Source of the DNA: Thermococcus thermotolerans | Lineage (GTDB): Archaea > Methanobacteriota_B > Thermococci > Thermococcales > Thermococcaceae | Length of the DNA: 64,000 nt | Direction: 5' to 3' | Assembly: GCF_024707485.1 (NCBI RefSeq) | Contig: NZ_CP102602.1 | Span: forward strand, 1,178,001 to 1,242,000 | Part shown: piece by piece, positions 11,094-60,671 of the stretch | Layout: every line of letters begins with the position of its first letter | Position numbering within the stretch: the stretch's first letter is position 1 | Program-made: the position numbers and the translations under genes | Notes under the pieces: generated by a model | What the model saw: only the letters and a program-made list of their open reading frames with translations | Told to the model about the DNA's origin: nothing | The model's database searches: none

Positions 11094-12011
11094 ATGATAC
11101 AAAAGAAAATATTAGGAATAATTACAATTCTAATAGTGTTGTATAGCACCCATACAGTTGTAGCGACTCCATTTGGGATATTAAGTAAAGAGCTAACACA
11201 AACCGAGCTAGAGGAAATTGGAAAAGTTATTAGCGAATACCGAACATTGATATCAAAGGGAGGGCTTCTTAATGACATTAGGGCACAACTACTTCTTATT
11301 AGACATGGGATTAAAAAAGGCAAAACTAAAGAGTATGTTTACAGTTTTCCACGAATCTCAACGAAGAATGGAGAAGCCCATATTCTTGGTAGAGAAGAAA
11401 TATTCCTTAAACTAGAAGTTACACCATATGCTTCATATTATTCTCCAAATTATGTATTTGTAGAATACCATTGGGAGTGGACAGATTCAATGGGAAGACC
11501 TGCCACTGAAGAATGGGGATGGAGAGGAAGTGAAGACCTTATTTATATCCCATATCCCAAGGGAATGCTCGAGGTAGTTCATGTATCTATAACTACAACA
11601 CTAGGTGTGGGGGATAATGGCGGGGTAAGTTATATAGGAGAAAAAGAAGAAACAACAAGCACTATAATTAATGGTGTTAAAACAACAATGACCACAAAAA
11701 CATATGCAGTAAAGGATGAGATTTTCAAGGGATCCATGACTATAATGTACAAAATACATCCAAACGTAAAAGGAGAGCAACTTGAATTTGGCATGAAATA
11801 TGAACATACATATGGTAATACATTATTCTCATTACTAGACAATCCATGGTACAATTTTGCAGCGGGAGTCATAAGTTTGGGATTAGCACTGCTCGCAGCA
11901 CCAGCAGTTATAACGTACACCGTAACAGCCTATACTCTTTCATCAGCTGCTGAAAGCTTATTAGACGGTTCATGGCCAGCATCTGCTAAAAGTTATAGAT
12001 GGACTCTATAG
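11094..12011 (+). CDS. Secreted protein of unknown function (accessory, AT-rich)
   Basis: The 305-residue protein has a clear signal peptide (IQKKILGIITILIVLYS, cleavage probably near VVATP). A beta-rich middle follows (VFVEYHWEWTD, SEDLIYIPYP, MTIMYKIHPN), and the C-terminus has a long hydrophobic stretch (about residues 257-295). The gene is visibly AT-richer than all core neighbours and uses A/T-ending codons, which suggests recent acquisition. It is followed by a relic hairpin repeat and then a small membrane-protein gene. A weak resemblance in the middle part to the secreted protein at 44426-45286 suggests one family. Function unknown; a secreted antagonist with a membrane immunity partner is a hypothesis. 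Confidence 0.8.
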   Translation: MIQKKILGIITILIVLYSTHTVVATPFGILSKELTQTELEEIGKVISEYRTLISKGGLLNDIRAQLLLIRHGIKKGKTKEYVYSFPRISTKNGEAHILGREEIFLKLEVTPYASYYSPNYVFVEYHWEWTDSMGRPATEEWGWRGSEDLIYIPYPKGMLEVVHVSITTTLGVGDNGGVSYIGEKEETTSTIINGVKTTMTTKTYAVKDEIFKGSMTIMYKIHPNVKGEQLEFGMKYEHTYGNTLFSLLDNPWYNFAAGVISLGLALLAAPAVITYTVTAYTLSSAAESLLDGSWPASAKSYRWTL

Positions 12012-12012
12012 A

Positions 12013-12058
12013 CTGACCTTCTCTCGGCGTGAACGGCGAGGCTTTCAAAAGAAAAATG
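12013..12058 (+). repeat. IS200/IS605-like right-end hairpin relic, copy 1
   Basis: It reads CTGACCTTCTCTCGGCGTGA and then ACGGCGAGGCTTTCAAAAG, starting two bases after the stop of the secreted-protein gene. It shares the CTGACCT start, a central GC-rich stem-loop and the end TTTCAAAAGAAAA with the copies at 18227 and 21824. No transposase gene is attached. Confidence 0.55.
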
Positions 12059-12129
12059 CAACAGAGTAACCACACAGTTTTTGTTTTTTCAACAACTATG
12101 TTATTATTTAGTTAGATAGGGGTGTTAAA

Positions 12130-12537
12130 ATGACTCATACAGACTTGGTATCACTGGAAATCATGAGAAGTGCTGATTTTATTAAACAGGTAATAGCCTA
12201 TGCCCTACTCTGTATTGGCAGGTTTTTCTTTCCGCATCCCGAAATAGAGACCGCCTTCTCAGCTGAGTTCTATGGAGCCGTTGCAGTTTATTTCATACTG
12301 ACACTGGCACTTGTTTTCAGCTACGAGCTCCTTCATGATGCGTTCTCGACAAGGAGAGACGAGTTTTCAATGGCAACCCCCAAAGAAAAATGGGTGATGA
12401 GACTCCTAATTTCAGCATACTTTGCGTTCTTACTGGCCACACCCAATAAAGAAAAGAAGCTGATATTATTAATAGCATGGAGCTTTAGTATTGGGCTAGC
12501 ATACCTCATTTCCAAAGTAAGGCTCAGGAAATTCTAA
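12130..12537 (+). CDS. Small multi-pass membrane protein, candidate partner of the secreted protein
   Basis: The 135-residue protein has about four membrane segments (approximately residues 18-34, 48-66, 90-103 and 108-124) and a basic C-terminus (KVRLRKF). I recognise no family. It starts at ATG 12130 after GGGGTG, 118 bases downstream of the AT-rich secreted-protein gene on the same strand, and is similarly non-core in composition. Gene order resembles that of bacteriocin and immunity pairs, and a comparable pair occurs at 43995-45286. The partnership is an inference from order only. Confidence 0.7.
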   Translation: MTHTDLVSLEIMRSADFIKQVIAYALLCIGRFFFPHPEIETAFSAEFYGAVAVYFILTLALVFSYELLHDAFSTRRDEFSMATPKEKWVMRLLISAYFAFLLATPNKEKKLILLIAWSFSIGLAYLISKVRLRKF

Positions 12538-18230: not shown

Positions 18231-18270
18231 CCTCTTACCTGCCTAAAGGGCAAGATTTCAGAAGAAAAAG
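18227..18270 (+). repeat. IS200/IS605-like right-end hairpin relic, copy 2 (left border of island A)
   Basis: It begins CTGACCTCTTACCTGCCTAA and continues AGGGCAAGATTTCAGAAGAA. The stem is GCC-TAAA-GGGC. It starts exactly where the membrane-protein gene is interrupted and lies in the same orientation as the copy at 21824-21865. Confidence 0.55.
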
Positions 18271-18276
18271 TGGTTA

Positions 18277-18761
18277 TCAACGCTCACAGGGATTCCCCAC
18301 CTGAGCTTTAAAGTATTCCTCGGCCCCCTGACGAGGATTTTGCCCTCCATCTTCCCGCTGATGCGCTTGAGGACTATTGCAGTCATATGCGAGCTGAACC
18401 ATGATTTGTCCTCAAGCAAGTCCCGATAGCCCTCTTCGTCCGTCAAATCGCTTTCTCTTACTGAAACAAGTAGTTTATAACCGTTCAATCTCCTGATTAG
18501 AACATACTCCATCTCTTCCCTTCCTGACCTCTTAATCAGCTCGCAGAGACCATCCTCCAAGTCTAAGAGTTCTTTCTTCACTAGGGTAACGCTTGAAGGG
18601 AGAACCTCAAGCTTTCCCCGTTTTACGGTCTCGACCAACCATTCGTACAGGAGGAACTGATTGTTCCCTTCAAAGCCTGCATCTCTGAGGTCGTGGTCGT
18701 CCGTGTTAAATATTTCCCTCTTCTTATCAAGCACGAGGTGAATGTAATTATCAACACCCAC
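18277..18761 (-). pseudogene. Immunity-like family member 3, internally deleted and frameshifted
   Basis: GTG 18761 (after GGGTGAT) opens with GVDNYIHLVLDKK, the family N-terminus. It jumps after about 15 residues to TDDHDLRDAGFEGNNQFLLYEW, which corresponds to the region after residue 125 in the intact copy at 19604-20410. About 110 residues are missing. Near 18324-18328 (five C on the plus strand) the frame slips. In the corrected frame the end reads AEEYFKAQVGNPCER then TGA at 18277-18279. The start overlaps the end of the preceding copy. A relic, not a functional full-length protein. Confidence 0.75.
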
Positions 18762-19577
18762 AGCAATCACCCGACGCCCCGGTTTGTGCCTTAAAAATCC
18801 TCTCGGCCTTCTTGAGTAGTCCCCTGTCCTCAACCCGCCCTGCAATTGGCGCGAGAGTTGTTAACGTGAGGAGCCCGCTTAGTTCTGTTAAATCTTCAAA
18901 GTGCTCCCGGTAAAGTTCCTCATCAGTCAGGTCGTCAGCCCAAATCCTCATTAAAAGCCTGTAATCTCCCATACTCCTTACGAGCACATAGGCGTCCCAT
19001 TCTTCCGGATTTTTCTTTTCAAGGGCATAAAGCCCGTCATCCCGCCCAATGAGCCCCTTTTAATCACCGAAAACGCTGAAGGGAGAATCTGGAGCTCCCC
19101 AAGCCCAAGTAGTTCCACCAGCCGGTCAATTAGGAAGTAATAGTTATCGTACTCAAGCCCCAGGTCTGTTAAATCGATATCATCCTGGTACCCCGAAATA
19201 AGTAATGCCTCCCCATTCATGAAGACTGTCAAAAATCTCATCAGCTCGTGGCTGTAAACGTCCCACCACCAGCCTCTCGGGTTGGGGTGGAGTTCAAGGA
19301 CGGAGAACCAGCCGGCCAGATAAATTTTAAAATCCGCCCCTTCTATGAACCCTCCCCTCACTGTCTGCAGAGGTTGTTTAAACCACAGGTATCCCGAGCT
19401 GATGAGGTCAAAGCTCTTTTTCAGGATTCCTTTCCGCCTGAGATACATTATCTCAGCTCTTGTCCACTTATCGGTATTATCGGGGTCAAACCTCGCCCTG
19501 AACTCTCTCCTCAGGAACTCTTCTACGCGCTCGGGAGTTTGTTCAAAAACGAAGAGGAGGTAGTGGTCAACTCCCAC
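18751..19577 (-). pseudogene. Immunity-like family member 2, single frameshift
   Basis: GTG 19577 (GGTGATGACA before it) starts GVDHYLLFVFEQTPERVEEF. The reading continues normally to SAFSVIKR, then loses the frame near 19054-19061 (runs CCCC and TTTT on the plus strand). One base shift restores LIGRDDGLYALEKKNPEEW through to KAERIFKAQTGASGDCCGC and TGA at 18751. Total length would be about 275 residues, as in the other copies. Either a recent pseudogene or a sequencing error in the homopolymers. No signal peptide; a cytosolic protein. Confidence 0.75.
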
Positions 19578-19603
19578 TGTCATCACCTTTCAATAATCAT
19601 GCC

Positions 19604-20410
19604 TCACAGCGACATGTGATTTATCCCAATTTGGGTTTTGAAATATTTTTCAGCTCTCTTCATGAGGAATTCATCCTCGACCCTCTTTCCAATGCGTTTT
19701 ATTCTCAAATCTGTTAGACTGAGACTGAACCATGCCCTGTCCTCAAGAAGGTCCCGGTAACATTCGTCATCTCTCAGGTTGTCCCTTTTTATCGTAACCA
19801 GAACCTTATCTTCTCCCAGACTCTTTATCAAGACGTACTCCTTCTCACTCTCACCTGGCCTAGGCTCCAGCTCATAAAGTCCATCATCGAGGTTCAGGAG
19901 TTCCCCTTTTACTAAAGTGAAGCCAGAAGGGACGGCTTCCAGTTTTCCTTTTTCCACCTCCCCAACCAACCATTCGTAGAAGAGGAACTGGTTATCCTCT
20001 TTAAAGCCTGCATCTCTGAAATCATGGTCGTCCGTGTAACCACAGATGAGGACCGCCCCAGCCCTCATCAGCTTTCTGAGAAACTTCATTACTTCGGAAC
20101 TCAAGACAAACATCCATCCGCTTGTCCATGCCTCAATCTGGACGAGCGTTGTGTTTTCTCTCGAGTATGTTTCAACATTGGCCAGGGCTATTAACCCTCC
20201 CCACTCTGGTATTGTCTTCATTGGATAGTCAATGTTCCCCACCTCTACCAGCTTGAATCCCCTCATATCAAACAGGAACCGCAGGTCCTTTTCCCTGTCC
20301 TCCCGCTGGTACGCGAGTTCGCGAGTGTACCTGAACTCGCGGGAGAGGTTCTCAAGCACTTCCCTCCAGGGCTTATCAAACACGGCAAGTGTATAATACG
20401 TGGTTCCCAT
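19604..20410 (-). CDS. Immunity-like family member 1 of island A (intact)
   Basis: The 268-residue, soluble, acidic protein has no signal peptide or membrane segment. ATG 20410 was chosen (GGGGGAGTGGT before it), giving MGTTYYTLAVFDKPWREVLE. Family features shared with the other copies are a short N-terminal strand, an aromatic middle region, ICGYTDDHDFRDAGF, a Leu/Lys-rich segment (GKLEAVPSGFTLVK), DGLYELEPRPG and the C-terminal AEKYFKTQ. It lies directly downstream of the exported nuclease-like gene, as immunity genes do. I recognise no named family, and the immunity role is inferred from order, location and tandem paralogy. Confidence 0.8.
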   Translation of the reverse strand: MGTTYYTLAVFDKPWREVLENLSREFRYTRELAYQREDREKDLRFLFDMRGFKLVEVGNIDYPMKTIPEWGGLIALANVETYSRENTTLVQIEAWTSGWMFVLSSEVMKFLRKLMRAGAVLICGYTDDHDFRDAGFKEDNQFLFYEWLVGEVEKGKLEAVPSGFTLVKGELLNLDDGLYELEPRPGESEKEYVLIKSLGEDKVLVTIKRDNLRDDECYRDLLEDRAWFSLSLTDLRIKRIGKRVEDEFLMKRAEKYFKTQIGINHMSL

Positions 20411-20457
20411 ACCACTCCCCCCATGATTCATTCATAATGGAAAATAAAGAAACAGGT

Positions 20458-21555
20458 TCAGTCGAATTCTGAAGCCAAGTAGAATACTTCAACGTCCACT
20501 CCGAACTTGGACTTTATCTCTTTTGGCAGGCGATATTTGTAGTAGTAATAAGACGCGGGGCTGTCAGCTCCCTCGGAGAAGTACACCTCAATCTTTCTGA
20601 TTCCATTATTGATGGCGTACTCAGCGTACTTTGCAAGCTGTTCCTCGCTTATTTTATGTGCGTTTCTCTTGCACTCTATCAGCACGATATCTGACCCTTT
20701 CTTGGTTATGATGTCAACCTCCGTTAGAGTTCTTCCCGATGCGTCTCTAATCTCTTTCTCGACTTCTTTTATTGTCCACCCATTCTTTTTGAGGTAGCTA
20801 ACCACTTCCGCCTCGTAGAGTGGACCCAGGGTTTTCTTCTTTTTTAAGTCTCTATTAATGGCCCCAATGAGTTTGCTTCCTCCGTGTTTAACGCTGCTTG
20901 CATCGTTAAGTACTTCTTCAAGCTTCTCAACGTCCCAGTCTCGGCGAATAACCTCCTTAAATGCATTCTTGTTAGTTAACCACTTCCTGATCCTTTTGAG
21001 GCTATCAACAACCTCATCAAAGTCCATGCCACGCCTTTTTACGTATTTCTCGCCTATCTCCTCGAGGTACTGCTTGCCCAGTTCATTTACAACCCACCTG
21101 GCGTTTTCTTTGCTGACTTTCGTGAATTCCCTAACCATTATTTTATGTCCCAGGTAGTCCTTTACGATGCCCATTGAAAATCTGGATATTTCATCCCCGT
21201 CCTTCGCGAGTATCTTGATTCCCCATTTTCCACCGCGAACGATGTCTGTTGGATCTGGAGCAAGAATAGTGGATAGTGCATCATACGCCATTGCTGCCTC
21301 AGGAGAGACGTAATGTTCGATAGCAAGACTTAACGCATTGTCCACGAGGATTGCACCTATTACCAGGACAATTCCCGGAACAGCCTGAGGCTGAACCTCA
21401 TCTCTTGGCCCCTTCTCCGGACTGAACTCCTGCGGAACCGTTACTGTACTGTTCACCGTCGCGTTAACGAAGCTTGCCGTGGCACTAGCTCCACTGACCG
21501 TCATTCCCAAGAAGAGCACCACCAAGGCTAGAGCAAAAAACCTCTTCCAACCCAT
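20458..21555 (-). CDS. Exported protein with C-terminal PD-(D/E)xK nuclease-like domain (putative toxin, island A)
   Basis: The 365-residue protein starts at ATG 21555 after GGAGGTGAAC. A signal peptide (residues 1-25, WKRFFALALVVLFLG) is followed by a second hydrophobic stretch (about 60-80), a charged helical middle (110-235) and a C-terminal nuclease-like domain. That domain has YEAEVV with Glu248, EVDIITKK with Asp281, and IECK with Glu294 and Lys296, then a Gln/Tyr helix (EEQLAKYAEYA). This is the E...D...ExK layout of restriction-endonuclease-like enzymes. It is about half identical by eye to the protein at 53330-54400. Export plus a nuclease tail plus downstream paralogues suggests a secreted toxin; activity is not proven. 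Confidence 0.82.
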   Translation of the reverse strand: MGWKRFFALALVVLFLGMTVSGASATASFVNATVNSTVTVPQEFSPEKGPRDEVQPQAVPGIVLVIGAILVDNALSLAIEHYVSPEAAMAYDALSTILAPDPTDIVRGGKWGIKILAKDGDEISRFSMGIVKDYLGHKIMVREFTKVSKENARWVVNELGKQYLEEIGEKYVKRRGMDFDEVVDSLKRIRKWLTNKNAFKEVIRRDWDVEKLEEVLNDASSVKHGGSKLIGAINRDLKKKKTLGPLYEAEVVSYLKKNGWTIKEVEKEIRDASGRTLTEVDIITKKGSDIVLIECKRNAHKISEEQLAKYAEYAINNGIRKIEVYFSEGADSPASYYYYKYRLPKEIKSKFGVDVEVFYLASEFD

Positions 21556-43994: not shown

Positions 43995-44426
43995 TTACAG
44001 GCATTTCTCCTTCGCCCGTCTGATTCTCTCGGATGAAGCCCACTCGTATGGATAATCAATATTACTCAATATTTTTGCCGATGCCAGTGCCCATACAATC
44101 GCCAGTATTGCCAAAGCGGCATAGTTCTGGTTAAGGTACTTGCTAACCAGACTTGCCGGAACTATTATCCCAATGCCTGCGGAATCAATAAAAGACTTCT
44201 TTAGAAGGGTATCACATAGCGGCCTGCATTCAAGTCGTTTGGATAACTCGCTGCACTTATGTGAGTTATATACAATCCACACCAAACTAGATATTGCCCA
44301 CGAAACAATGGCTATAAACACTACGTCTGGACTGTCCAACGTCCCAAAAAGAAAAGATAGGCCAAAAGAGACTATGCTCTCCCTCAAAAGGTTGGTTCTA
44401 AACCGTACTCTGTAATATTCATCCAT
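43995..44426 (-). CDS. Small multi-pass membrane protein, partner of the secreted protein upstream
   Basis: The 143-residue protein starts MDEYYRVRFRTNLLRES and has about four membrane segments (approximately 17-29, 32-52, 79-94, 100-118) and a charged C-terminus. There are three Cys in the central loop (HKCSELSKRLECRPLCD). Not recognised. ATG 44426 overlaps the stop of the upstream secreted-protein gene (TGATG), so the two proteins are made together. Low-GC like its partner. Resembles an immunity protein by order and topology only. Confidence 0.72.
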   Translation of the reverse strand: MDEYYRVRFRTNLLRESIVSFGLSFLFGTLDSPDVVFIAIVSWAISSLVWIVYNSHKCSELSKRLECRPLCDTLLKKSFIDSAGIGIIVPASLVSKYLNQNYAALAILAIVWALASAKILSNIDYPYEWASSERIRRAKEKCL

Positions 44427-45286
44427 CAATTTACACTCCCCCCGATTGATGTAGGGCATATCCCTCCCGGCGAACATGGAGGCCATGGTGGAGTTGATTT
44501 CCAGGGATATTCGCTAGTGGAGTAAACTATTTCCCTCTCGTCCTTCTTTTCCCAAAGACCTTTGCCTCTCCCCAGTACATCACCGAGTATTTTCTCAACA
44601 CCCCACGTCACGGTAGTCGAGACGAGCGGATTTGTATATTTAATGCTTACGAGTGTATTGAAGGCAGTCATGGTTGGCCTAATGTAGTCCCAATTGTGAA
44701 AGTAACCAAAATGAGTCCCTAGTGTTATCTTTTTCTTTGGGGTTATCCCAACCCATATTATGCCCCATGAGACATCGTCATCTACTGGAATTTTGATGAA
44801 CATTTGGTAGATCCTGCGATAGCCTCCGTTGTAAAATAATAGCTCCTCAGTAGGTTCTATAGAGAACCTTACAGGGCCAACTTTGTACTCCATGCCATGT
44901 ACTGTTTCAATACGAACTTCTGGCAGATATTCATAGAATATGTAAGGGTCAGGATAACCATGGATTTCCCAAGGAAATGAGATTACAATGGCATCCTTGC
45001 CTCCGCCAAACAATTCTGGCAACCCATTCCATTTCCATTCAAATGCGAGGTATAACTTCCCGTCAAGGACGAATGACAAATCCTTTCTAAATCTGACTGT
45101 AAGCTGGTTCTTATCTCCAAGCACCATTGGAGATATCGGTGCGGTTTTAGATACCTCCGGAGACATCTTCGAAGCAACAGATTCCTGAGGTACGGACACT
45201 TCAGGATATGAAGTTGCCAATGTAGCTCCTGATGCTCCCAGCACCAGCAGTCCTACTAAGACTGCCATCAAGCCTCGCCACTTCAC
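44426..45286 (-). CDS. Secreted protein of unknown function with proline/cysteine-rich tail (accessory)
   Basis: The 286-residue protein starts at GTG 45286 after GGAGGTGAAATCCC. A signal peptide (MAVLVGLLVLGASGATLATS) is followed by a Ser/Thr/Val-rich linker, then a beta-rich body (LYLAFEWKWNGLPELFGGGK, DAIVISFPWE, MFIKIPVDDD, ITLGTHFGYFHNW). The unusual tail is TPPWPPCSPGGICPTSIGG, with two cysteines. The gene is AT-richer than its neighbours. The body faintly resembles the protein at 11094-12011 (W-W-G-D-I-P pattern). It is translationally coupled to a membrane protein. A secreted antimicrobial protein with an immunity partner is a hypothesis. Confidence 0.78.
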   Translation of the reverse strand: MKWRGLMAVLVGLLVLGASGATLATSYPEVSVPQESVASKMSPEVSKTAPISPMVLGDKNQLTVRFRKDLSFVLDGKLYLAFEWKWNGLPELFGGGKDAIVISFPWEIHGYPDPYIFYEYLPEVRIETVHGMEYKVGPVRFSIEPTEELLFYNGGYRRIYQMFIKIPVDDDVSWGIIWVGITPKKKITLGTHFGYFHNWDYIRPTMTAFNTLVSIKYTNPLVSTTVTWGVEKILGDVLGRGKGLWEKKDEREIVYSTSEYPWKSTPPWPPCSPGGICPTSIGGSVN

Positions 45287-53329: not shown

Positions 53330-54400
53330 ATGGGCTGGCGTAGGTTTGCTACCTTCGTCTTGATTGTGCTCTTCCTTGGAATGACAGTTAGTGGAGCAAG
53401 TGCCACTGCGAGCCTCGTCAATTCATCCACCAACAGCACGGTGAAGCTTCCGTCGGGACTCAACCCACAGGGAAAACCGGGAGACGAGGTACAGCCACAA
53501 GTAGGCCCGATACTCATCTTTGTTGGCATGATTCTGCTGGATTTGCTCCTCAGCTGGGCGCTTGAGAAATACGTTTCTCCAGAAGCCGCGATGGTTTACG
53601 ATGCAGTCTCGCTCTTAATCCCAGACCCCGGGGACGGCCTCAAGCTTGGTATCAAAGTCCTAGCCAAGCACGGGGACGAGATTACAAAGTACTCAATAGT
53701 AATCGTCAAAAAGGACCTGTGGCGTACCAAAGTCGTCAGAAAGATTACCGATGTTAGTGCCAGCAGTGCCAAGTGGGTAAAGAGCGCCCTCGGCGAGAAG
53801 TACATCAAAGAAATCGCAGAGAAATACGTCGTAAAGAGGGGTAAGAACTTCGATGACGTTGTTAATAGCCTCAAGAGAATCCAAAGCATGGGTATAACCA
53901 GCGCAAAAGCTAGACGATTAATCATTGACAGGGGCTGGGATGTCAAAAAGCTTGAAAGGGTACTCAGCGACGCAAAAAGCGTTAGAAAAGGAGGAAGCAA
54001 GCTTATTGGGGCCATAAATAGAGACTTGAAAACCCAAAAAGACCTCGGACCACTCTATGAGGCTGAGGTTGTGAGCCACCTCAAGCGGAGTGGATGGAGG
54101 ATAAAAGAGGTAGAGAAGGACGTGGTAACCTCAATCGGAAAAACTGAGATTGACATAATCGCCGAAAAGAGTGGAAGAACAGTTTACGTTGAGTGTAAGA
54201 GAAGCTTTGATGGGATAGATATTGGTCAAATAGCAAAACAGGCTGAATACGCCAGAAACCACGGAATAAAGACGATAAAAATTTATTATGCAGAGGGACC
54301 ATCATATCCACCCACTTACATCCTTCAGAAGCTCAGGGAAATTAGTTCAAAATACAACGTTGATATAAGCTTAGTTTATCTCGGATCTAACTTCAACTAA
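53330..54400 (+). CDS. Exported protein with C-terminal PD-(D/E)xK nuclease-like domain (putative toxin, island B)
   Basis: The 356-residue protein is closely similar along its whole length to that of 20458-21555. It has a signal peptide (RRFATFVLIVLFLGMTVSG), then a hydrophobic stretch (about 60-78, ILIFVGMILLDLLLSW). YVSPEAAMVYDAV and a charged helical middle follow. The nuclease-like tail has YEAEVV (Glu244), TEIDIIAEK (Asp275), VECK (Glu288, Lys290) and QIAKQAEYA. ATG 53330 follows GGTGAT. The gene stands between the DmpA gene and an ABC transporter and is more AT-rich than both. It is followed by two immunity-like genes. Toxin role is an inference. Confidence 0.82.
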   Translation: MGWRRFATFVLIVLFLGMTVSGASATASLVNSSTNSTVKLPSGLNPQGKPGDEVQPQVGPILIFVGMILLDLLLSWALEKYVSPEAAMVYDAVSLLIPDPGDGLKLGIKVLAKHGDEITKYSIVIVKKDLWRTKVVRKITDVSASSAKWVKSALGEKYIKEIAEKYVVKRGKNFDDVVNSLKRIQSMGITSAKARRLIIDRGWDVKKLERVLSDAKSVRKGGSKLIGAINRDLKTQKDLGPLYEAEVVSHLKRSGWRIKEVEKDVVTSIGKTEIDIIAEKSGRTVYVECKRSFDGIDIGQIAKQAEYARNHGIKTIKIYYAEGPSYPPTYILQKLREISSKYNVDISLVYLGSNFN

Positions 54401-54441
54401 CTTTTTTATTTTTTCTAAACTACAGCAAAGGAGGTGAAGAT

Positions 54442-55248
54442 ATGGGCGTTGATAACTATATTTACTTTGTCTTTGATAAGAAGCCGGAAGAGGTTGAAAA
54501 CTTTCTTAAAAGGGAGTTTGAAGCTGAGGTTCGGAATGAGGAGTTTGATGATCCTCGGATGGATTACCTCGGGGAAAAGGGTCTTTTAGGAGAGCATTTT
54601 CAGCTAATCACCTCAGGCGAACTGCTCTTTGACCCGCCACTAAGGACTACAGAATGGGGGGTTATAATCAACGCTGACTTTCATGTTTATACTGTTAAGG
54701 ACTACACAATCCTTGAAATCCACCCCAATCCAAGAAGCAGGTGGGGGTTTGTCCTCAGCTCGGAAGTCATCAGGCTCTTAAAACGGTTCATGAAGGCAGA
54801 ACCTCTCCTGATATGCGGTTACAGGGATGATGCAGATCTAACAGAACTCGGTTTCAATTACAACATGTCATATTTGTTCATAAACTGGCTTCCCGAGACA
54901 ATTAAAACCGGAAAACTCAAAACCCTACCCTCAGCCATCACAGTAGTGAAGAAAGAGCTTCTTGGCCTTGAGGATGGTCTCTATGAACTGATTGAAAGGC
55001 CCGGAAGGGAAGAAAAGGAGTACGTGCTGGTAAAGAGCATTGAGGACTATAAAATACTCGTCGCAGTAGAGGAAGTCGATTTAATGGATGAGGAGTGCTA
55101 CCGTGACATTTTGAATGACAAAGCAGAGTTTAGCTTAAAAATCGTTGGGGTTACATTCAAGCGCATCGGTCGGAAGGTTAAAGATGAGTTGCTCCTCAGG
55201 AGGGCCGAAGATTACTTTAAGACCCAGGTGGAGGAAGATGGGTGTTGA
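54442..55248 (+). CDS. Immunity-like family member of island B (intact)
   Basis: The 268-residue soluble protein begins MGVDNYIYFVFDKKPEEVEN. It is a full-length member of the family found in island A (19604-20410): ICGYRDDADLTELGFNYN, GKLKTLPSAITVVKKELLG, DGLYELIERPGREEKEY, AEDYFKTQ. Lack of a signal peptide fits a cytosolic inhibitor of an incoming nuclease. ATG 54442 is preceded by GGAGGTGAAGAT. The last codons overlap the start of the truncated copy that follows. Confidence 0.8.
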   Translation: MGVDNYIYFVFDKKPEEVENFLKREFEAEVRNEEFDDPRMDYLGEKGLLGEHFQLITSGELLFDPPLRTTEWGVIINADFHVYTVKDYTILEIHPNPRSRWGFVLSSEVIRLLKRFMKAEPLLICGYRDDADLTELGFNYNMSYLFINWLPETIKTGKLKTLPSAITVVKKELLGLEDGLYELIERPGREEKEYVLVKSIEDYKILVAVEEVDLMDEECYRDILNDKAEFSLKIVGVTFKRIGRKVKDELLLRRAEDYFKTQVEEDGC

Positions 55249-58468: not shown

Positions 58469-59744
58469 ATGAACTGGAAGACCCCAGCAGTGTTACTCAT
58501 CGGACTTTTCTTGTTGGGGGGGGGTCGTGACGGCAGCACCAGTTGACAAGCCAGAAGCAGTACCTCTAGCGACAGTCAAAGCACTGGCAGTCAGGGAACT
58601 TCACAAGTTCCCGGAATTCAACGGGGCAGTCCCAACCAACCCAACCCCCCTCTACTTCCCCGACGGCAGGTTGGCGGCCTACGAATTCAGAATGGTCAAG
58701 AATGGAAAAACCATAGGCTACATCATAGTATCAGCCAACAGGAACCTGCCACCGGCAATCCTAGAGGCGGGATTTGGCAAGAAGACTCCGAGCGACATGA
58801 TGAAAGAACTCGCCGCGAGGAAAGGAGTGAAAACCTACCGCTTCACCTACCTTGGAGGACTAAGCTATGGGTTACTAACGGGTGACACGGTAGTGAACAT
58901 GAAGGGGAGAGAGTACAAAAAGCCAAGCAGATACACCCTCTCACTGGAAGTTGATGCCATCAGGAACCAAAAAGAGTGGGAATCACTCCGGACAGAAAAA
59001 GCCCACACCTCCGTTGAGGTGAGGTATCCAACACTGCTTGCCAGTGCGGTAGAATACAAAGTCATCCTCACAGTTCCGACGTGGTCTTGGCAGGATAGCG
59101 ATGAAGGTGGTGCAGATAATGGTTTGCCCCCAACACCCCATCCAATTGAGGTTACAGAACTCGGTTACGATTATGTTGGACCCGATCCCGATCCCTGGGA
59201 AAAGGATGATGGATGTGCCCCGATCTCAGGAGCCATGATAGTAGGGTATTATGAACTTCAGTATCGAGACAGCTGGTACCGTGAGGCGGTGATAGACATA
59301 CTCCACATAACCATGGATACTCAAGGAAAAGAAACATCTTATCAAAACATTGCCCTAGGAATGGAGAGGTTCTATGAAAAAGCTGTGGAGTTGTACAACA
59401 GCGGCATAATTTCCAGAAAACCCAGATATGACTACGATTCGTTTACGTTATATCTTTCGAATAACCTTCAGCTGTACACGTACATTAAAAGCGAGATCAA
59501 CATGAACAGGCCAACTATACTAACATCCACTCATGGAGTAAGCGAAGATGGCAATTTTGAATGGCCTTCTCAGGGTCTCGGCAATTATCATACAGTAGCA
59601 GTAACAGGATACAAAGCTTTTGACGACGGTAGCAAGTACATATACGTCCACACAACAGAAAACAGTCCCTATGCAGCATGGATACAGCTCGAAAGTATAA
59701 CTAATCCAGTATTGACCATAGTTAGACCTATTTACAAGGGGTGA
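58469..59744 (+). CDS. Secreted C39-like cysteine peptidase, frameshifted by a nine-G tract
   Basis: ATG 58469 (GGAGGTG before it) opens a signal peptide (NWKTPAVLLIGLFLLGG). The G run at 58516-58524 then throws the frame off, and the ORF stops at 58544. With one G fewer the frame continues as VVTAAPVDKPEAVPL into a 405-residue body. A prodomain-like region (GKTIGYIIVSANRNLPPAIL) is followed by the catalytic Cys in DDGCAPISGAMIVGYY, His in GNYHTVAVTGY and Asn/Asp in VHTTENSPY. This is a papain-like C39-type peptidase. It may be phase-variable at the tract or carry a sequencing error. The 3' part is lower in GC. Confidence 0.8.
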
Positions 59745-60671
59745 ATGACTATTATGGAAGGCGCCAGAGGGTTTAAGTTTCGTCTTTTTATTTTTCTATT
59801 GATTGTTCTGATAGTAGTCACTGCATTAGGTATACGTTACTGGGAAAAAGAAACTATCTCTCCCAACAACCAGACGTTGAATCTCCACGAATACAACCAG
59901 AAATGCAAGCTTATTATCCACTCAAAACAACCAAAAAATACCTCAGTAGGCAAATGGATAGACAATAAAATCACCGAAGTAACCAACGGCTCCGAGATCA
60001 CGCTGATGGACTGGTTCGCCGTTTACCCCAACATGAGCACCGGCACGCCCGAGGGCTGGAACGCCTACCTCATCTACTGGCCGGAGAAGTTCAACCTGAC
60101 GTTGCCCTGCTCAATGGGCGGCTTTACAATGGCCCTGGTTGGCAGAAAGAGCGGAGAATCCTTCTACCAGGCGGTTTTAATAAACGAGACTTTTCCCGAA
60201 CACGAAACAGAGTGCTGGGATGGAGGAAAAGGACGGTGGCTGGAACTGCCGCCGGGAAGGGCCTACTTCGCGGTTCAGTACGTTCCAACGGCCAACGCAA
60301 CCTGGAAATTTACCATCCTGACACCAACCAAGACCTGGACCGACTTCAGGGACTACCACCTCTTCCTTGAGACTCCGGTAGAGCTTAAAGCCACCTGCAC
60401 CTGCCCCATAAAAACGCTGATAGAGAGATTCGAAACTTCCATTAAAGGCCAGGGCTTCGAAGAGACTGAACTCTGGGCCATGCCCGAGGAAAACGACTGT
60501 TTTAAGCCCCTCAGCGTCAAGCTATATCGCAGGGGTGATCAGTACCTCTACGTGGAGTTCGTCCAGGTGAAGGGTCTGGACCTGGTCAGGGTTCTCATGA
60601 TACTCGGCGAGGGAGAGGAGGTCGTGAAGGCCTACGCGGAAGGCTTCACCGCAGTGGGCGGTGAGGGTTAA
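59745..60671 (+). CDS. Membrane-anchored extracellular protein, unknown, partner of the peptidase
   Basis: The 308-residue protein has a signal-anchor (about 12-29, RLFIFLLIVLIVVTALG). An extracytoplasmic part contains three potential N-glycosylation sites and several Cys (NLTLPCSMGG, ETECWDGG, ATCTCPIKTL, ENDCFKPL). No family recognised. It starts directly after the peptidase stop; ATG 59754 is an alternative because GGGGTGA would then be better spaced. It may be substrate, inhibitor or co-factor of the peptidase. Confidence 0.7.
   Translation: MTIMEGARGFKFRLFIFLLIVLIVVTALGIRYWEKETISPNNQTLNLHEYNQKCKLIIHSKQPKNTSVGKWIDNKITEVTNGSEITLMDWFAVYPNMSTGTPEGWNAYLIYWPEKFNLTLPCSMGGFTMALVGRKSGESFYQAVLINETFPEHETECWDGGKGRWLELPPGRAYFAVQYVPTANATWKFTILTPTKTWTDFRDYHLFLETPVELKATCTCPIKTLIERFETSIKGQGFEETELWAMPEENDCFKPLSVKLYRRGDQYLYVEFVQVKGLDLVRVLMILGEGEEVVKAYAEGFTAVGGEG

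What the first reader, a model, noticed from the sequence alone, without database searches (positions are those of the whole stretch)
18277..21555. Candidate secreted nuclease toxin with a tandem immunity-gene array (island A)
The sequence shows an exported protein whose C-terminal domain has an E...D...ExK pattern (Glu248, Asp281, Glu294-Lys296), followed on the same strand by three paralogous cytosolic proteins. Polymorphic toxin systems are organised like this: a secreted protein with a toxic tail and one or more immunity genes immediately after it. The immunity-like family here (GVDNY start, GYxDD region, AExYFKTQ end) is not one I can name. Toxicity, target and immunity are inferences.
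Basis: partly seen in the sequence, partly recalled or inferred. Interest (0 to 1): 0.85.

Follow-up and report, generated by a model that had tools for sequence, protein, structure and literature searches.

The report
Archaeal swappable toxin and immunity genes
A heat-loving archaeon carries genes for an exported protein with a DNA-cutting-enzyme-like tail and, right behind it, a likely protective partner; relatives carry the same front end with other toxic tails and other partners, which is the pattern of weapons used between rival microbes.

Summary
Window 20458-21555(-) encodes a 365-aa exported-looking protein whose tail carries E248, D281, E294-x-K296 and an invariant Q306. One intact 275-aa partner follows, then two decayed copies (one frameshifted, one deleted and frameshifted). 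A second pair lies at 53330-55248(+).

The polymorphic-toxin reading is strongly supported by comparison. The tail models as a PD-(D/E)XK nuclease (Z 11.2 to AF1548). In the fetched DNA, 21 of 22 tail places are followed directly by the partner family. The ~60-residue leader is shared with proteins that have unrelated EndoU/BECR-like tails and other downstream families. Tail similarity tracks partner similarity (r=0.71); the middle region hardly does (0.26). At the same chromosomal site in genome G012, an EndoU-like tail plus a new gene interrupts the toxin gene and leaves the old nuclease tail and old partner stranded downstream. The partner's two best structural neighbours (weak, Z 6.5 and 6.2) come from immunity systems against PD-(D/E)XK nucleases.

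Verdict: a Thermococcaceae polymorphic toxin system, a new variant of a known kind. Killing, neutralisation, export and entry are untested, and the 2019 survey of archaeal polymorphic toxins could not be read.

The parts
20458..21555 (-). Toxin A, 365 aa, exported-looking protein with PD-(D/E)XK tail
21358..21555 (-). Leader (residues 1-66): signal peptide and linker, shared with proteins that carry other tails
21319..21375 (-). Hydrophobic segment after the leader (residues 61-79), possible membrane or translocation element (inference)
   Evidence: mean hydropathy 2.24; 23 of 24 long leader proteins reach 1.6 in this region
20851..21318 (-). Middle region (residues 80-235), varies independently of the tail
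20461..20838 (-). Toxin tail (residues 240-365): E248, D281, E294, K296, Q306
19604..20431 (-). Partner 1, intact, 275 aa, predicted immunity protein
18751..19586 (-). Partner copy 2, broken by a frameshift (ORFs 18978-19586 and 18751-18987)
18258..18845 (-). ORF holding partner copy 3, a remnant with an internal deletion and a frameshifted end
53330..54400 (+). Toxin B, 356 aa, same architecture, 57% identical to toxin A
54442..55248 (+). Partner B, intact, 268 aa
55145..55603 (+). Truncated second partner at locus B, 152 aa

Best explanation
A polymorphic toxin system of Thermococcaceae. The cell exports a protein whose conserved leader (signal peptide and a short sequon-bearing linker) and hydrophobic segment serve trafficking, while the exchangeable C-terminal ~125 residues are the toxin. 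In both window copies the toxin is a PD-(D/E)XK nuclease, most likely cutting DNA of related archaea once inside them. The next gene makes a cytosolic protein that most likely binds the tail and blocks it, protecting the producer and its kin; extra and decayed copies are left from earlier cassettes. Tail and partner move together as a cassette by recombination under the conserved leader. Shown here: shared leader with different tails, nuclease fold and motif, linkage, co-variation, one tail displacement in place, partner-only alleles. Inferred: secretion, entry, target, killing, neutralisation.
For: Nuclease fold and motif. Leader shared with other tails, of which six of ten proteins scanned match EndoU/PBECR below cut-offs. 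21 of 22 tail places followed by the partner, and 8 partner places without a tail directly before them. Tail-partner identity r=0.71, p=0.0002, middle-partner r=0.26 (11 pairs). Toxin subtype predicts first downstream family: 54 of 67 same-subtype pairs agree, 0 of 20,000 shuffles reach this. Tail displaced at the island-A site in G012. Different cassettes at the island-B site. 26 of 28 leader proteins carry an N-x-S/T sequon in residues 25-60.
Against: No activity, export or rescue has been measured. Pfam/NCBIfam hits for the tail are all below cut-offs. Rpb5 chains, which are not nucleases, reach Z 8.3 against the tail model. The partner's structural matches are weak (Z under 8; Foldseek none at E below 0.001). 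13 of 67 same-subtype pairs have different first downstream families. No known delivery domain was recognised and the entry step is unknown. Many copies are decayed, including the old partner in G012, which has two in-frame stops.
Confidence: 0.85

Rival explanations
1. Membrane-anchored intracellular suicide or defence module: the leader and the hydrophobic segment form two membrane spans that leave the nuclease in the cytosol, held in check by the partner until infection.
For: A second hydrophobic segment follows the signal-like start in 23 of 24 long leader proteins; export was not tested; toxin-partner order would look the same.
Against: A signal-peptidase-like AxA site and N-x-S/T sequons are conserved between the two segments, which suits an outside location; partner-only alleles and stranded old tails are typical of exported polymorphic toxins. 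None of this is decisive.
Confidence: 0.08
2. Secreted scavenging nuclease that digests environmental DNA; the downstream gene is a chaperone or an unrelated passenger.
For: Exported-looking protein with a nuclease fold.
Against: Partner co-varies with the tail, is present after 21 of 22 tails, persists without a tail in 8 places, and the same leader carries unrelated tails with other downstream families.
Confidence: 0.05
3. Self/non-self recognition module like VARTIG, with no killing.
For: Same order, hypervariable islands, exported first gene (PMC8416519: abstract, Results part 1 of 3, passages).
Against: No Ig domain among Pfam hits; nuclease-like tails are present, which the VARTIG authors say they could not find in their modules.
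Confidence: 0.02

Closest known systems
Polymorphic toxin systems (Zhang et al. 2012, PMC3482391, passages seen)
   Same: Conserved N-terminal part, exchangeable C-terminal toxin, immunity gene straight after it, stranded tails with their immunity genes; Tox-REase-1 and -6 have motifs E, D, ExK, Q like this tail.
   Different: Short Sec-type leader with a hydrophobic segment and no recognised delivery domain; partner in no Pfam family at sequence level; found only in Thermococcaceae among the 115 genomes searched.
Archaeal polymorphic toxins (Makarova et al. 2019, mBio e00715-19; not held, not read)
   Same: Cited in PMC8416519 as predicting such systems in many archaea, with DNase or RNase domains as common toxins.
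   Different: Cannot tell: the paper and its tables could not be checked; this family may be in them.
VARTIG modules of Thermococcales (PMC8416519)
   Same: Hypervariable islands of Thermococcales with an exported first gene and recombining C-termini.
   Different: VARTIG proteins have Ig domains and no identified toxin domains; here the tails are nuclease-like and no Ig domain was hit.
TseT-TsiT and TseV-TsiV T6SS effector-immunity pairs (PMC10281587, PMC9635880, passages seen)
   Same: PD-(D/E)XK effector paired with an immunity protein; the partner model's top two structural rows are from such pairs; TsiV3 blocks the effector's DNA-binding side.
   Different: No sequence-level match of the partner; no T6SS-type delivery seen; fold match weak (Z 6.5, 6.2).
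Haloarchaeal T6SS toxin-immunity pairs (PMC11566945, passages seen)
   Same: Archaeal toxin genes each followed by an immunity gene; four of six putative pairs verified.
   Different: Delivered by a contractile injection system; here the protein has its own export leader.

Membership tests
Polymorphic toxin system | Conserved N-terminal trafficking region carrying different C-terminal toxin domains | tested here: met
Polymorphic toxin system | C-terminal domain of a fold known from toxins, with catalytic residues | tested here: met
   PD-(D/E)XK model and motif; a CdiA toxin-immunity complex chain among the matches at Z 7.0
Polymorphic toxin system | Specific immunity gene directly downstream | tested here: met
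   Position and co-variation only: 21 of 22 places, r=0.71
Polymorphic toxin system | Tail replacement leaving stranded tail and immunity genes | tested here: met
   L073; L076, L105, L149, L152
Polymorphic toxin system | Toxic tail neutralised by its own immunity protein | not testable with these tools
   needs experiment
Polymorphic toxin system | Delivery out of the producer and into the target | tested here: inconclusive
   Signal-like leader, sequons and hydrophobic segment; no delivery domain among Pfam hits
Named Tox-REase families (Pfam/NCBIfam) | Match to a family model above cut-off | tested here: not met
   Only sub-threshold UPF0102, Hjc, Mrr_cat, YraN and others
VARTIG | Ig domains in the exported protein | tested here: not met
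   No Ig domain among Pfam hits
Imm52 (PF15579) | Match to the family model | tested here: not met
   0 of 1 genome at E<=10; the control rang in 1 of 14 genomes, below cut-off; none among Pfam hits of 21 members
TsiT/TsiV-like immunity fold | Shared fold | tested here: inconclusive
   Z 6.5 (170 residues, rmsd 5.7) and 6.2 (188 residues, rmsd 5.4), both under 8

The most novel reading that the evidence does not exclude
A self-contained archaeal toxin class that needs only the general export route and its own hydrophobic segment to leave the producer and enter the target at very high temperature, armed with interchangeable DNase-like or RNase-like tails, spread over five genera of Thermococcaceae, and guarded by an immunity fold shared with bacterial immunity proteins against PD-(D/E)XK nucleases despite no detectable sequence similarity.
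Probability: 0.3. Interest if true: 0.87.

Novelty: new variant of a known kind. Interest (0 to 1): 0.72.

Why it matters
It gives hyperthermophilic archaea a concrete, testable weapon-and-immunity system, in an order that includes genetically tractable species such as T. kodakarensis (recalled). The VARTIG authors could not find toxin domains in their modules of the same order; here nuclease-like tails, partners and tail replacement at a fixed chromosomal site are all visible. It turns several families of unnamed genes into candidate toxins and immunity proteins, and it raises the question of how a toxin with so short a leader gets into another archaeal cell.

Tried and rejected
Housekeeping readings of the tail (Holliday-junction resolvase, YraN/UPF0102, Mrr): Pfam and NCBIfam hits are below cut-offs and I read them as the shared PD-(D/E)XK core; the gene context argues against a repair enzyme. 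Leader as a mere signal-peptide artefact: the profile matches 52 of 115 genomes at E<=0.001, but the weak rows (E 8.5e-9 and above) mostly cover only the first 25-50 positions and look like ordinary signal peptides. I count only rows below 1e-11: 45 rows in 29 genomes (hand count; two G004 rows are halves of one broken copy).

Led nowhere: PDB sequence search with the partner profile (0 hits at E<=5) and with the toxin profile (best E 0.055, AF1548); viral contigs, searched with the partner only (no relatives); genome contigs gave 3 loci, so the structure alignments had only 5 and 6 rows; Imm52 profile; Foldseek alone for the partner (none at E below 0.001). A weak family of 265-276-aa ORFs matching part of the partner was not pursued. 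Makarova et al. 2019, the survey of archaeal polymorphic toxins, is not held, so I cannot say whether this family is in it. Paper searches of the held library that showed no account of this family: (listings only; several returned more papers than were listed).

Rows left out or kept: L068 (same DNA as window B) was left out but is one of the 25 proteins. The G015 toxin, which lost D281 and K296, is in the 11-pair test and not in the 9-pair test. A weak hit in another class (G062, E=0.0099) was not counted. One search covered the window and 49 fetched regions, chosen because they hold a hit to toxin, partner or leader; one of its 22 tail places is only 54 bp long, and some places come from close relatives, so they are not independent.

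Full report
What is there. The window is G000:C1:1178001-1242000 of a 2.07-Mb genome held as one contig. Named records that hold the same genes are MAGs called Thermococcaceae, Thermococcales and Thermococcus; that the window itself is Thermococcus is inferred. At 20458-21555(-) lies a 365-aa ORF. It starts with a charged then hydrophobic stretch ending in GASATA, continues through N-x-S/T sequons to PRDEVQPQ, then a hydrophobic segment (mean hydropathy 2.24 from residue 61), a middle region, and a tail with E248, D281, E294-x-K296 and Q306. After it on the same strand come one intact 275-aa gene (19604-20431), a copy split by a frameshift (18978-19586 and 18751-18987), and a remnant with an internal deletion and a frameshifted end. 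G+C is 0.47-0.49 here against mostly 0.52-0.57 around. A second pair, 57% identical in the toxin, lies at 53330-55248(+), with a truncated extra partner.

The tail has a nuclease fold. Sequence models only hint at it: UPF0102, Hjc and Mrr_cat, all below cut-off. In 14 relatives E294 and Q306 are invariant; D281 and K296 are nearly so, and the G015 protein has lost both. The model of residues 216-365 (5 sequences, mean pLDDT 75, the first ~19 residues poor) runs helix, three strands, helix, strand, helix, strand, with E248, D281, E294/K296 and Q306 on the expected elements. The structural second look lists AF1548 (Z 11.2, 108 residues), a Pyrococcus abyssi repair endonuclease (10.0), EcoT38I and EndoMS (9.5), FokI (8.9), Hjc (7.5) and a CdiA toxin-immunity complex chain (7.0). 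It also lists XisH-family proteins (up to 10.1) and Rpb5 chains of RNA polymerases (up to 8.3), which are not known to me as nucleases. Foldseek alone gave two matches at E<=0.001.

The front end is shared by other proteins. Searching 101 genomes with the toxin gave relatives in 23 at E<=0.01, and many hits confined to the first 30-85 residues, often in ORFs of about 320-380 aa. The tails of 25 leader proteins longer than 250 aa, one of them a duplicate of window B, fall into groups of 14, 10 (the nuclease kind) and 1. Of ten proteins scanned from loci with other tails, six match EndoU, PBECR2 or PBECR3 in their C-terminal parts, all below cut-offs, and four do not; I read the group as BECR-fold RNase-like. 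A leader profile has 45 strong rows (E<1e-11, hand count) in 29 of the 115 genomes of the phylum searched, in five genera, all of one family. The partner profile matches 22 of the same 115, in three genera of that family.

Tail and partner belong together. In the window and 49 fetched regions, 21 of 22 tail places are followed directly, on the same strand, by the partner family; the exception is a 202-bp remnant after an intact pair. Eight partner places have no tail directly before them. Over 11 toxins read in one frame, tail identity follows partner identity (r=0.71, p=0.0002; 0.68 with the middle held constant). Middle and partner correlate weakly (0.26, p=0.047), and not once the tail is held constant (0.12, p=0.16). 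With the G015 toxin and a near-duplicate removed, nine pairs give 0.70 for tail-partner and 0.15 for middle-partner. Examples: window A and G034 share 41% of the middle but 74% of the tail and 68% of the partner; window A and G012 share 94%, 56% and 48%. Over 24 leader toxins, subtype predicts the first downstream family: 54 of 67 same-subtype pairs agree, 13 do not, and 0 of 20,000 shuffles reach 54 (families by single linkage, so some are merged).

Exchange at fixed sites. G012 carries an island between the same flanks as island A (85% and 88% DNA identity). There a toxin like window B's is homologous over residues 1-213 (74%). It then changes to another tail (EndoU, E=0.0065, below cut-off) and a 248-aa gene. 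About 1.2 kb on, the old nuclease tail resumes (residues 237-356, 85% identical), followed by the old partner (71%), which has two in-frame stops. At the site of window B, G044 has a nuclease pair, G056 only the partner, and G047 a BECR-like toxin with another downstream family. Nuclease tails without a leader also sit behind other toxins or cassettes in L076, L105, L149 and L152. In L076 and L105 the D281 position has changed, in L076 the E294 position too.

The partner. It matches no Pfam family convincingly and no PDB sequence, but models well from six sequences (mean pLDDT 86.9, pTM 0.87). Foldseek gives nothing at E below 0.001. In the second look the top two rows are 9oz0_A, from the PA3907-PA3908 effector-immunity complex (Z 6.5, 170 residues), and 7drg_B, PA0821 (6.2, 188 residues); 6d7y_B, from a CdiA complex, is ninth at 5.3. 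PMC10281587 (passages) lists PA3907/PA3908 as TseT/TsiT, a TOX-REase nuclease pair, and PA0822/PA0821 as a putative VRR-NUC nuclease pair. PMC9635880 (passages) reports that TsiV3, whose closest structure is PA0821, blocks the DNA-binding side of a PD-(D/E)XK effector, and that TsiT interferes with oligomerisation of TseT. That chain A of 9oz0 is the immunity partner is inferred from its size and alignment, not checked. All Z values are under 8, so this is a lead, not a proof of kinship.

How it most likely works (inferred). The toxin leaves the cell by its signal peptide, reaches a neighbour and enters by an unknown step, perhaps helped by the hydrophobic segment. The tail then cuts DNA (RNA for the other tails) unless the neighbour has the matching partner in its cytosol. 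Selection for new tails and for kept immunity would explain tail exchange, stranded tails, partner arrays and partner-only alleles.

Known or new. The kind is known: polymorphic toxins (PMC3482391, passages), with PD-(D/E)XK toxins noted in archaeal loci (PMC6393860, passages) and a wide archaeal survey by Makarova et al. 2019 (not held; cited in PMC8416519). For Thermococcales, the VARTIG paper (abstract, Results part 1 of 3, passages) describes different Ig-domain islands without identified toxin domains. My searches of the held library showed no account of this family, but the 2019 survey could contain it. I therefore file it as a new variant of a known kind.

Noticed in passing
window 43995-45286(-): Low-G+C stretch with an exported-looking 286-aa protein (MKWRGLMAVLVGLLVLG start) followed by an overlapping 163-aa ORF with hydrophobic stretches; looks like another small island.
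   Followed up: no
window 11094-12537(+): Low-G+C stretch with an exported-looking 305-aa protein followed by a 135-aa ORF with hydrophobic stretches.
   Followed up: no
window 58527-60671(+): Low-G+C pair of a 405-aa ORF, possibly a cysteine peptidase (recalled resemblance), and a 308-aa ORF with one hydrophobic N-terminal stretch.
   Followed up: no
L105 6986-7474(+): ORF whose first part reads like the start of a peptidase and whose end reads like a BECR-type tail, followed by a 218-aa ORF: perhaps a stray cassette landed in another gene.
   Followed up: no
L066 6076-6776(+): Two ORFs that look like pieces of a transposase lie inside the multi-cassette island of G025, which holds three leader-type toxin copies.
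   Followed up: no
loci with flank families 3, 4, 5, 6, 10 (L064, L065, L066, L078, L086, L092, L146, L149, L150, L152, L153, L154 and others): One chromosomal neighbourhood, next to what looks like a hydroxylamine reductase gene, holds these cassettes in genomes of five genera: an apparent insertion hot spot.
   Followed up: partly
L101, L022, L023, L025: ORFs of about 265-276 aa match only about residues 65-130 of the partner, weakly (E 1e-4 to 1e-2): distant relatives or chance.
   Followed up: no
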